Below, piece by piece: positions 48,562-56,949 of a stretch of DNA of 64,000 bases. The notes beneath the pieces were generated by a model. The model did no database searches, was not told where the DNA came from, and saw only the letters and a program-made list of their open reading frames with translations. The stretch's first letter is position 1, and each line of letters opens with the position of its first letter. The translations under genes were made by a program, and so were the position numbers. The stretch covers positions 29,873 through 93,872 of the forward strand of contig NZ_JANXTI010000065.1 of assembly GCF_025352425.1 (NCBI RefSeq), read 5' to 3'. Source of the DNA: Flavobacterium sp. (GTDB taxonomy: Bacteria; Bacteroidota; Bacteroidia; Flavobacteriales; Flavobacteriaceae).

Positions 48562-48581
48562 TAACTTTGATTTATAGTTTT

Positions 48582-48611
48582 AAAGCCGACTTTTTTAAGT
48601 CGGCTTTTTTA
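48582..48611 (+). terminator. Intrinsic terminator after susD
   Basis: AAAGCCGACTT pairs with AAGTCGGCTTT across a four-base loop and continues into a T-run. Confidence 0.9.
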
Positions 48612-48650
48612 TTTTTTTTTTGTAATTTAGCCCGAATAAAAAATTGTGTC

Positions 48651-51545
48651 ATGAAAAAGTATTATATAATTTTATTAGTTGTTTATTTTTCTTCCTTTAA
48701 TTTGTGTAATTCACAAACAAAATACAACGAGAATAGCGGTATTCAGAAATCCTATAAATTCAATAACACCGTTAATAGGGGAGAGGCTATTGCTTTTTAT
48801 TTGAAAAGGAATGGCTTAGATACAGAGGTTTCTTTTGTATCAAAAAAAGAAACAACAGATCAAAGTGGAATGGTTCACCAAAGAAACCAACAATTTTACA
48901 AAGGAATTAAAATTGAATTCGGAACATTGATAACACATACCTTAAACGGGAATGTTATCTCTATCAATTCAGAGTTATATAATCCTAAATCTGTAAATAG
49001 TGTACCAACATTAACTTCACAAATTGCTTTCAATAAAGCATTGTTGAATATTGGGGCTCAAAAATACCTTTGGGAGGATAATGAGCAAGCCAAAATAATG
49101 GATTACGAAAAGCCAAATGGAGAACTGGTGTTTTTCCCAATTGTTAAAACAGGTGAGATAACATTGGCTTATAAGTTTGATATCTACTCTATAGAACCAC
49201 TATCAAGAATAGAAATTTTTGTAGATGCACATTCGGGCAAAATACTATATAAAAATCCAATCATTAAACATTTATCCGAAACAACTAAAAGTATAAATGA
49301 AAATGCGATATCATTAGAGGCATTGTTAACTGGGACTGCTGCGACTAAGTATAGTGGTTCAAGAAGTATTGAAACCGTTTTTAATACCAGTTTAGGTAAA
49401 TATGTTTTATCTGATATTACAAGAGGAAATGGGGTCGTGACCTATAATTGCGAAAGACTGGTTAATACGTATCAAAATGTTCACTTTCAGGATAATGATA
49501 ATAATTGGACAAGCACAGAACATGCCAATTCATACTTTGACAATGCTGCTTTGGATGCCCATTGGGGTGCTGAGATGACATATGATTTTTGGAAAATCAT
49601 TTTTAACCGTAATGGGTATGACAACAATAATGCAATCATTAAAAACTATGTTCATTTTCAGAGAACTGCGGCTACTTTAAGCAATGCTTTTTGGAATGGC
49701 TCTGTTATGAGCTATGGAGACGGTGTTAACAAACCATTTACTGCTATAGATATATGTGGGCATGAAATAGGACATGCTGTTTGTACCTATACAGTAAATC
49801 TTGCTTATCAAAATCAATCTGGTGCCATGAATGAAGGATATTCTGATATTTGGGGAGCCTGTATTGAACATTTTGGAAAAACCGGAAATTTTTCAGGCGT
49901 TCCAGCTGCTTCCGTATGGAAAATAGGCGAAGATATTACTAGTGGAGGTTTACGTTCTATGGTAACTCCAAATACAAATGGGGATCCAGATTGTTTTCAA
50001 GGGACAAACTGGAAAGTAACAGGAGATGAAGGAACCTGTATACCATCAGGCACATCAAATGATTATTGTGGTGTACATAGCAATAGTGGTGTTATGAATC
50101 GTTGGTTTTATGTTTTGACAATGGGTGCTTCAGGTACGAATAATGCTCCTATTGCAGATAGAGATACTTACAATGTAACAGGTATAGGAATTGTTAAATC
50201 GTCTCAAATTGCTTATTATGCAGAAAGAGATTATCTAACACCAAATTCCACTTATTTTGATGCTAGAGATGCCACAATTGAAGTAGCTAAAAGTTTGTAC
50301 TGTAGTGCCAGTCCTGAAGTGGCTGGAGTTACTAATGCATGGTTTGCTGTAAATGTTGGAAATAGTTATGTTAGTGTTGCAAATGATGTTAGTCAGGAAA
50401 GCCTTCCCGTAAATAACTCTGTGAACTGTGGTGTTACAAGTGTTATACAAACTGTTAGTTTTAAAAATCTTGGGACAAGTACACTTACATCTGTTACCAT
50501 ATCCTATAACTTAGATGGAGGAACAAATACAAACATAGTTTGGAATGGAAGTCTTTCCACTTGCGCAACAGGGAGTCAACAAATAACAATCAACACATCA
50601 AGTTTATCGGCAGGAACACATATATTAAATGTTACTACCACTACATCAGGTGATGCAGTTGTTTCAAATAATGCTAAATCGACTTATATTTTTGTTAATC
50701 AATCAGCAAGTGTTAACCAGATAAATACATTTGAATCAGCATCAGATAATTTATTGGCGTCTAATGAACCTATTTCTGTTTTGTCAGTTTGGCAAAGAGG
50801 TATTATGAACAAGCCCAATTTAACAGACAGCTCAAATGTATATGCCACTGGTTTAACGAATCCTTATCCATCGGACACCAAATCTTACCTAACTTCAAGA
50901 TGCTATGACTTGTCCCAGGCACAAAATCCTATTTTAAAGTTTGATATGGCGTTTGATTTACAATACAGTGCTGATATTTTGTACATGCAATATTCAGCGA
51001 ATGGAGGTAATTCATGGAATTTATTAGGTACAGATTCGAATACTAATTGGTATACAAGTAACTCAGGTTGTGCAAATTGCATTGGCAGTGAATGGACGGG
51101 TGATGCAGGTAGTATGAATGCAAGTGGTTCAACCAATGGCACAAAAAGGGAATATAGTTATGATCTTTCCGCATTTGGTGCTACATCGCCAAGTCCGCAG
51201 TCAAATATGTTATTCAGATTTGTTTTCCAATCAGATGCTACAGATAGCTACGATGGGGCACTTATAGATAATTTCGTAATTGAAACTTCATTAGGTACTA
51301 ATGAATTTTTAATTAACGATACTAACATATATCCAAACCCGGTAAAAGGAATTTTAAATTACACTATTAGTGATCAGGTTGTTTTAACCGCCATTACCAT
51401 TCATGATGTTTCGGGTAAAGAGATATACAAATCAGGAAATACGATTAATAACGTAATAGACGTTTCCAGCCTTTCTTCGGGAGTTTATTTTGTAACATTT
51501 AAATCTGACAAAGGTTCGGTTAGTAAGAAATTTATTAAAGAGTAA
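48651..51545 (+). CDS. Secreted M4 (thermolysin-like) metalloprotease with T9SS tail
   Basis: 964 residues from the ATG at 48651; the track start at 48567 runs through the terminator. After a signal peptide there is an FTP propeptide region (about 30-120). The catalytic domain has HEIGHAV (H371-H375) and NEGYSDIWG (third ligand near E395). A CARDB-like beta domain and a C-terminal adhesion-like region follow. Residues about 885-964 are a type A type IX secretion signal (NIYPNPVKGILN, GVYFVTFKSDKGSVSKKFIKE). It should be exported to the cell surface or medium to digest protein. Confidence 0.94.
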   Translation: MKKYYIILLVVYFSSFNLCNSQTKYNENSGIQKSYKFNNTVNRGEAIAFYLKRNGLDTEVSFVSKKETTDQSGMVHQRNQQFYKGIKIEFGTLITHTLNGNVISINSELYNPKSVNSVPTLTSQIAFNKALLNIGAQKYLWEDNEQAKIMDYEKPNGELVFFPIVKTGEITLAYKFDIYSIEPLSRIEIFVDAHSGKILYKNPIIKHLSETTKSINENAISLEALLTGTAATKYSGSRSIETVFNTSLGKYVLSDITRGNGVVTYNCERLVNTYQNVHFQDNDNNWTSTEHANSYFDNAALDAHWGAEMTYDFWKIIFNRNGYDNNNAIIKNYVHFQRTAATLSNAFWNGSVMSYGDGVNKPFTAIDICGHEIGHAVCTYTVNLAYQNQSGAMNEGYSDIWGACIEHFGKTGNFSGVPAASVWKIGEDITSGGLRSMVTPNTNGDPDCFQGTNWKVTGDEGTCIPSGTSNDYCGVHSNSGVMNRWFYVLTMGASGTNNAPIADRDTYNVTGIGIVKSSQIAYYAERDYLTPNSTYFDARDATIEVAKSLYCSASPEVAGVTNAWFAVNVGNSYVSVANDVSQESLPVNNSVNCGVTSVIQTVSFKNLGTSTLTSVTISYNLDGGTNTNIVWNGSLSTCATGSQQITINTSSLSAGTHILNVTTTTSGDAVVSNNAKSTYIFVNQSASVNQINTFESASDNLLASNEPISVLSVWQRGIMNKPNLTDSSNVYATGLTNPYPSDTKSYLTSRCYDLSQAQNPILKFDMAFDLQYSADILYMQYSANGGNSWNLLGTDSNTNWYTSNSGCANCIGSEWTGDAGSMNASGSTNGTKREYSYDLSAFGATSPSPQSNMLFRFVFQSDATDSYDGALIDNFVIETSLGTNEFLINDTNIYPNPVKGILNYTISDQVVLTAITIHDVSGKEIYKSGNTINNVIDVSSLSSGVYFVTFKSDKGSVSKKFIKE

Positions 51546-55305: not shown

Positions 55306-56949
55306 TTATTCTCCAATCAAAACTCCCGAAACATTCCAGAAACTGAAACTGCTTCCTTCAGGTAATCCTTGCGGAATCTTAATTTGTATGGTATGAGTTC
55401 CTGCTTCTAAGTTTCCTAAATCAATAAAAATTGGATTGGTTACCGTTCCCGGACACCAATTTGCCCGACTGTAATCGGATGATGATAATCCGTTAGGGAA
55501 ATTTCCAGATGCTGGATTTGACAAACGATAGGAACCACAATCTTGTCGCCAGGGCGTAAAACTAAATGTTGCAGCACCGTCTAAATAAATTGAGTTTTTC
55601 TTTGTCACAAATTCATCTCCATTTTCCCAACCGCCGTGACCTGTAGCTATGTAACGAAGTTTGCAGTTTTTCATTGGCTTGTTTAATTTGAAAGTAACTT
55701 CCAAACCTTTATCTGAACTAAACATCGTTCCATATTCCTGCCCGGCCATTTCCATAATATTAGTAGTGCAGAAAAGAGGAACAATTAGAGTTGGAATAAC
55801 TTTGCTTTCTTCTTCATGAATCGTAATATTAGCCGACACTTTGTGACCGCCTTTGTCATAATTACCAATATTGATTCCAATCCAAACTTCCTGATTGCTC
55901 AACAAGGTTCTCAAATCGGAAACATCCTGACGATACAGCACATTTTCTGCCCATGTTTTATCCTTAAGTTGTAATGTGTTGTATTGCTTTACGCCAAAAG
56001 GAGTAAAGAACCGCATCAATTCTACAATCGGGCTATAATCTTCTGTTGCAACAACTCCTTGATATTCCTTTCCATTTCCGTTGTTATACATTGGTAATGT
56101 TTTTGCTCCGTTTTTTAAGCCATCCAAAAATGACTTTCCTCTATCCGTCGGGATAATGAAAAATGAACCCGTTCTGTCGTAAGCATCGCCATTGGATTGT
56201 TCCGTTACGTCTACAAAAATCTGGCTACCAACTTTTATTTGTGGAATTTTAATCTTTCTAACAGCAATAGTTCCATTAGCAAATCGAAGAATAGTATCGT
56301 TTGATTTGGAAGCATCCGAAAAGTTGATAATTTGGTCTTTAAAAACATTGATTGTAGTAAAGCGGCTTTTCCACAGCAAGTCTTTATAAGTTAAGGCATC
56401 AACTTCTTTACCGCGTATTTCGGTAGTATCTAAATCTTTATTTTTTTCTATTTTAACTGCTGATATTACAAAATTTCCATTTCGTATTATTTCCAATACC
56501 AAACCTAAATTTTGTCCCAAGATTATTGGAGAACCTTTTACTTTTAAATCATTCGTATACCACAACTCAATCGTATTAGAGTTGACAATGGTCTTTGCTT
56601 TTTTGCAGGTATAACCTAATATTTTTTTTGTTTCATTCAAATAATCGAAAGTCTGTGCAGCTAATGAAACGGTATCTTTCGTATAAATCACGCCACGTTT
56701 TAAGGAGGCAAACTGCTTAAAAGAATTAGTTGTCCTATTTATCCAGGTATGCTCAAAAGGATAAGTTTCATTTTGATTATTAATGTTTTCAGTCATCAAT
56801 AGCGTATGTGTGGTTCCGGCAAAAACAACAATTCGATCTTGTTCCTCAATCAAACTCCCGTTAGAACTTTTCAGGTAACTGATTTTATAACTTTGTGAAA
56901 ATAATTTTGTGGTAACTATCAACAAAACAAATAAAAGTAAATTTTTCAT
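55306..56949 (-). CDS. GLPGLI-PNGase F fusion, exported glycoamidase-like protein
   Basis: A 547-residue protein with a signal peptide (to about 19). Residues 20-170 look like a GLPGLI domain (ETKKILGYTCKKAKT, YTNDLKVKGSPIILGQNLGLVLEI). Residues about 200-547 resemble both domains of peptide-N-glycosidase F: GDAYDRTGSFFII near 254-266 with D258 in the position of the catalytic Asp, MRFFTPFGV, HGGWENGDEFVTKK with E446 near the position of a second catalytic acid, and SRANWCPGTVTNP near 494. The predicted role is release of N-glycans from glycoproteins. The fusion with GLPGLI is unusual; no T9SS tail is visible. Confidence 0.85.
   Translation of the reverse strand: MKNLLLFVLLIVTTKLFSQSYKISYLKSSNGSLIEEQDRIVVFAGTTHTLLMTENINNQNETYPFEHTWINRTTNSFKQFASLKRGVIYTKDTVSLAAQTFDYLNETKKILGYTCKKAKTIVNSNTIELWYTNDLKVKGSPIILGQNLGLVLEIIRNGNFVISAVKIEKNKDLDTTEIRGKEVDALTYKDLLWKSRFTTINVFKDQIINFSDASKSNDTILRFANGTIAVRKIKIPQIKVGSQIFVDVTEQSNGDAYDRTGSFFIIPTDRGKSFLDGLKNGAKTLPMYNNGNGKEYQGVVATEDYSPIVELMRFFTPFGVKQYNTLQLKDKTWAENVLYRQDVSDLRTLLSNQEVWIGINIGNYDKGGHKVSANITIHEEESKVIPTLIVPLFCTTNIMEMAGQEYGTMFSSDKGLEVTFKLNKPMKNCKLRYIATGHGGWENGDEFVTKKNSIYLDGAATFSFTPWRQDCGSYRLSNPASGNFPNGLSSSDYSRANWCPGTVTNPIFIDLGNLEAGTHTIQIKIPQGLPEGSSFSFWNVSGVLIGE

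What the first reader, a model, noticed from the sequence alone, without database searches (positions are those of the whole stretch)
55306..56949. GLPGLI domain fused to PNGase F
The N-terminal 150 residues have GLPGLI-like motifs (GYTCKKAKT, GQNLGLVLEI) and the rest resembles both PNGase F domains, with D258 and E446 at likely catalytic positions. No T9SS tail is seen, so the enzyme may stay in the periplasm, unlike secreted PNGase F. An N-glycan-handling role for GLPGLI would be new.
Basis: partly seen in the sequence, partly recalled or inferred. Interest (0 to 1): 0.6.

Follow-up and report, generated by a model that had tools for sequence, protein, structure and literature searches.

The report
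Type II PNGase F with GLPGLI domain
The gene encodes an ordinary, already crystallised kind of sugar-removing enzyme (type II PNGase F); its puzzling 'bowl' domain turns out to belong to the large uncharacterised GLPGLI family, which gives that family a structure and a testable function (holding greasy molecules).

Summary
The protein has a signal peptide, a GLPGLI-like N-terminal domain and both PNGase F domains, all with overwhelming scores. It is a member of a known kind: PNGase F-II (PDB 4R4X/4R4Z, 7ZGN), whose N-terminal 'bowl-like' (NBL) domain has its own Pfam family. D258 and E446 are conserved. G362 and E400 match the EMTypeII pair G380/E418, so core alpha-1,3-fucose should be tolerated. 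It occurs in about a third of sampled congeners at one syntenic site, outside any sugar-utilisation locus. Lack of a T9SS tail is normal for this subfamily. The idea that GLPGLI handles N-glycans is not supported: published removal of NBL left activity unchanged.

Profiles match reciprocally, standalone GLPGLI profiles find significantly only NBL-bearing PNGases in the PDB, and a confident model of a standalone GLPGLI protein has NBL as its best structural match. The next matches are the LolA/RseB/VioE/EPDR1 superfamily of hydrophobic-pocket proteins. This contradicts the published view that the fold is unique to two enzymes, and suggests a hydrophobic-ligand or membrane-docking role.

The parts
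55306..56949 (-). PNGase F-II gene (547 aa)
   Evidence: single ORF; phmmer to 4R4Z/4R4X 698 bits, residues 19-547
56896..56949 (-). signal peptide, about residues 1-18 (MKNLLLFVLLIVTTKLFS), no lipobox cysteine
   Evidence: read from sequence; mature 4R4Z chain aligns from residue 19; SignalP not available
56380..56883 (-). NBL / PNGase_F-II_N domain, residues 23-190
   Evidence: PF22252 2.5e-64
56401..56739 (-). GLPGLI-homologous core, residues 71-183 (ETKKILGYTCKKA ... ELWYT ... GQNLGLVLEI)
   Evidence: TIGR01200 3.7e-13; hhalign to standalone GLPGLI 99.2%, 5.5e-20
55819..56355 (-). PNGase F catalytic domain, first half, residues 199-377
   Evidence: PF09112 2e-62
55315..55737 (-). PNGase F catalytic domain, second half, residues 405-545
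   Evidence: PF09113 3.4e-53
56176..56178 (-). D258, followed by R259; counterpart of PNGase F D60-R61 (D60 numbering from general knowledge)
   Evidence: invariant in intact homologues
55864..55866 (-). G362 = G380 of EMTypeII (E118 in PNGase F); opens the pocket for core alpha-1,3-fucose
   Evidence: constant offset of 18 with E400/E418; G in 47/47 NBL-bearing, D in 23/23 short homologues
55750..55752 (-). E400 = E418 of EMTypeII, which takes over the E118 role
55612..55614 (-). E446, in HGGWENGDEF; counterpart of PNGase F E206 (numbering from general knowledge)
   Evidence: conserved

Best explanation
An exported type II peptide:N-glycosidase F. The C-terminal double beta-sandwich hydrolyses the bond between asparagine and the first GlcNAc, using D258 and E446. 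[quoted passage not shown] It probably acts in the periplasm or on released glycopeptides as a scavenging enzyme. The N-terminal domain is a GLPGLI-family domain, acquired in what looks like a single fusion. It most likely does not take part in catalysis; its LolA-like half-barrel more probably binds a hydrophobic ligand, a lipid surface or a partner, and so positions the enzyme. Shown here: domain identity, residues, homology, distribution and synteny. Inferred: activity, location, and the job of the N-terminal domain. The confidence given is for the type II PNGase F identity with a GLPGLI-family domain; the job of the domain is scored among the rivals.
For: Pfam and PDB matches over the full length. 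Catalytic and specificity residues conserved with published EMTypeII roles. About 47 of 150 sampled genomes of the genus carry the full-length gene, in 28 of 29 loci examined between the PLP/CBS synthase gene and DUF2851. NBL = GLPGLI: reciprocal HMM matches of 18/18 standalone proteins, one of them (L002) chosen independently by TIGR01200; hhalign; GLPGLI profiles find significantly only PNGF-II and 7ZGN in the PDB; AF2 model of a standalone GLPGLI protein (pLDDT 90.1) best matches 4R4X/4R4Z/7ZGN (1e-9 to 1e-8). NBLs form one clade, SH-aLRT 99. NBL removal harmless in vitro.
Against: No assay. The genome has one GH92 mannosidase, no GH18 and no glycan-utilisation genes around either gene, so N-glycan use as food is not clearly supported by context. 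The LolA link is by predicted structure only, E 2e-4 to 1e-2, TM-score at most about 0.55 on the target; no Pfam LolA family hits the window protein. A model of the window protein from its single sequence failed (pLDDT 32.5).
Confidence: 0.92

Rival explanations
1. The N-terminal domain is a glycan- or glycoprotein-recognition module that feeds the catalytic domain.
For: It is linked only to type II (G/E) PNGases, 47/47 against 0/23, so it could bear on substrate choice.
Against: Its removal did not change activity or specificity; a similar module sits away from the active site in a related enzyme model (PMC12381499); standalone relatives lie next to carboxypeptidase-regulatory-like genes, not glycan genes. 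The link with type II can be shared ancestry.
Confidence: 0.12
2. The domain is a hydrophobic-ligand or membrane-docking module of the LolA superfamily that holds the enzyme at a membrane or to a lipid-bearing partner.
For: After the PNGases, the best fold matches are all one superfamily: LolA, LolB, RseB, VioE, ependymin-related proteins, whose shared trait is a hydrophobic pocket (PMC6363788).
Against: No pocket or ligand was examined; VioE shows the fold can do something else; matches are weak in TM-score.
Confidence: 0.45
3. The domain is a folding or secretion aid, or an inert spacer with no ligand.
For: Catalysis does not need it; type I PNGases do without it; authors suggest orientation of the catalytic module.
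Against: 16 columns are invariant over relatives as little as 30% identical, more than a spacer would keep.
Confidence: 0.3
4. The GLPGLI similarity is a chance motif match.
For: The TIGR01200 score sits at the cut-off (49.8 against 50) and the literal GLPGLI string is absent.
Against: Reciprocal profiles, hhalign 5.5e-20, and fold match 1e-9.
Confidence: 0.02

Closest known systems
PNGase F-II / EMTypeII of Elizabethkingia meningoseptica (PDB 4R4X, 4R4Z)
   Same: Full-length match of 698 bits, same domain order, G/E specificity pair, NBL domain
   Different: Another species; activity of the window protein untested
B. massiliensis B035DRAFT_03341 PNGase (PDB 7ZGN, titled 'Glpgli family protein')
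   Same: Same architecture and residues (436 bits)
   Different: Sits beside a GH92 gene in its genome; the window gene does not
PNGase F / EMTypeI and Bacteroides group 1 PNGases
   Same: Catalytic domain, D and E catalytic residues
   Different: No NBL; E118 or D where this has G; PNGase F does not accept core alpha-1,3-fucose
GLPGLI family TIGR01200 / Porph_ging PF09697
   Same: Core ETK.ILGY.C.KA...W.T....P...GL.LE, and predicted fold
   Different: Standalone 215-300 aa exported proteins; the window copy has GQNLGLVLEI for GLPGLILEV and carries an enzyme
LolA superfamily (LolA, LolB, RseB, VioE, EPDR1)
   Same: Fold match of a standalone GLPGLI model, next after NBL
   Different: No sequence match found by Pfam; pocket and ligand unknown

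Membership tests
Type II PNGase F | PNGase_F-II_N + N-glycanase_N + N-glycanase_C in one chain | tested here: met
Type II PNGase F | Catalytic D and E conserved | tested here: met
   D258, E446
Type II PNGase F | G at the E118 position, E at the 418 position | tested here: met
   G362, E400
Type II PNGase F | Releases N-glycans with core alpha-1,3-fucose | not testable with these tools
   needs an assay
GLPGLI (TIGR01200) | Score over the curated cut-off | tested here: inconclusive
   49.8 against 50; 52.3 in the genome search
GLPGLI (TIGR01200) | Literal GLPGLI motif | tested here: not met
   GQNLGLVLEI instead; so a homologue of the family, not a canonical member
GLPGLI (TIGR01200) | Homology with standalone members, by profile and fold | tested here: met
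LolA superfamily | Highly curved beta-sheet fold | tested here: inconclusive
   model of a relative: E 2e-4 to 1e-2, TMt up to 0.55; the window protein itself could not be modelled
LolA superfamily | Hydrophobic pocket | not tested
T9SS cargo | C-terminal sorting domain | tested here: not met
   none in this gene; 62 matches elsewhere in the genome

The most novel reading that the evidence does not exclude
The NBL domain of type II PNGases and the whole GLPGLI family are one branch of the LolA superfamily: exported half-barrels that hold a hydrophobic ligand, and in these enzymes dock an N-glycosidase to a lipid or a lipid-bearing partner.
Probability: 0.4. Interest if true: 0.6.

Novelty: new member of a known kind. 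Interest (0 to 1): 0.4.

Why it matters
GLPGLI proteins are common in Flavobacteriia (46 of 151 genomes of the window's family match even the related NBL model, some with up to nine copies). Several are under direct PhoP control in the duck pathogen Riemerella anatipestifer (PMC9603813), and no function is given for them in the papers I could search. Tying them to solved structures, and to a superfamily of hydrophobic binders, makes their function directly testable. It also warns that 'GLPGLI family protein' in databases can hide a PNGase.

Tried and rejected
Gene on the plus strand: frame closed. Chance GLPGLI match: rejected by reciprocal tests. Sugar-utilisation locus: neighbours are an M4 protease with T9SS tail, a porin, a PLP/CBS synthase, DUF2851, a helix-hairpin-helix protein and an acyl-CoA dehydrogenase. 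GH18 partner: none. Structure of the window protein from its single sequence: useless, so not searched. First related-loci query with a broad GLPGLI alignment: no conserved patch. The automatic ORF pick was wrong for L026-L029 and L040; these rows are left out of the residue counts. Sun et al. 2015 is not held; its claims are taken through PMC9522356.

Full report
What is there. The interval is one minus-strand gene, 56949 to 55306, 547 aa, with an N-terminal hydrophobic signal and no lipobox. Pfam reads it end to end as PNGase_F-II_N, N-glycanase_N, N-glycanase_C. In the PDB its best matches are PNGF-II of Elizabethkingia meningoseptica (698 bits) and the Bacteroides massiliensis PNGase 7ZGN (436 bits), the latter deposited as 'Glpgli family protein'.

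Residues. D258 (in YDRTG) and E446 (in HGGWENGDEF) are conserved. Crouch et al. 2022 (PMC9522356) give G380 and E418 as the residues that let EMTypeII take core alpha-1,3-fucose; both fall on the window protein with one offset of 18, at G362 and E400. All 47 intact NBL-bearing homologues in my sample have G and E; all 23 cleanly read short ones have D and Y. The prediction is a type II enzyme. The counts are not independent, because the two sets are separate branches.

Distribution and setting. About 47 of 150 sampled genomes of the genus hold the full-length gene at 42-100% identity. In 28 of 29 of the loci I examined it lies between the same two genes, the PLP/CBS synthase and DUF2851, so it looks like an old, vertically kept gene, not an island. 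The genome has one GH92 mannosidase, also alone between housekeeping genes, and no GH18. The T9SS tail is absent here and in every homologue whose end I read, although the genome has 62 tail matches. Crouch et al. note the same type I signals in Bacteroides and leave the location open.

The N-terminal domain. The literature calls it NBL, of unknown function, with a fold 'unique to these two proteins'; in 2025 its role was still unknown (PMC12381499). No paper in the library holds both GLPGLI and PNGase F. I tested the link in five ways. (1) A search with PF22252 over 151 genomes of the family rang mostly in standalone ORFs of 215-300 aa. (2) All 18 standalone proteins match both TIGR01200 and PF22252, including L002 of the window's own genome, which was picked by TIGR01200 alone. 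(3) hhalign of NBL against standalone sets: 99.2%, 5.5e-20, and 97.1%, 5.4e-11. (4) Profiles of standalone GLPGLI find PNGF-II (7e-13, 5e-5) and 7ZGN (7e-10) and nothing else significant among 177,635 PDB sequences. (5) A confident AlphaFold model of a standalone Flavobacterium erciyesense GLPGLI protein, made without any PNGase sequence (pLDDT 90.1, pTM 0.84), has 4R4X, 4R4Z and 7ZGN as its six best PDB matches (1e-9 to 1e-8). NBL is a GLPGLI-family domain. A tree puts all NBLs in one clade (SH-aLRT 99), in keeping with one fusion, though 170 columns and long branches limit it.

The wider fold. After the PNGases, the same search lists RseB, ependymin-related proteins, VioE, LolA and LolB (2e-4 to 1e-2, TMt up to 0.55). 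These are one superfamily, whose common trait is a hydrophobic pocket in a strongly curved sheet (PMC6363788). That paper and PMC6608618 do not mention PNGase. This is a lead from a predicted structure, not a proof, but it turns 'bowl of unknown function' into a concrete hypothesis: the bowl holds a hydrophobic ligand or docks on a lipid surface. Removal of NBL leaving the enzyme unchanged in a test tube fits a positioning role and speaks against a part in handling glycans.

Verdict. The gene itself is ordinary, a new member of a known kind.

Noticed in passing
L108-L187, flanks of standalone GLPGLI genes: In a set of 35 flanking ORFs, 13 match CarbopepD_reg_2 and 6 are further GLPGLI/Porph_ging proteins: GLPGLI genes often sit in tandem and just upstream of large carboxypeptidase-regulatory-like proteins.
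   Followed up: partly
G090, G022, G010, G033, G070, G050: Several genomes carry 5-9 GLPGLI copies, some in tandem arrays on one contig.
   Followed up: no
window 48567-51545: M4 thermolysin-like protease with FTP propeptide and a T9SS tail, three genes from the PNGase.
   Followed up: no
G040, G289, G264, G317, G595, G392, G554; e.g. L070: A distant second group of N-glycanase_N proteins (about 38-51 bits, 440-560 aa), in some genomes beside the type II enzyme; not classified.
   Followed up: no
L189 9432-12275 (minus strand): The genome's only GH92 alpha-mannosidase, alone between housekeeping genes rather than in a glycan locus.
   Followed up: partly
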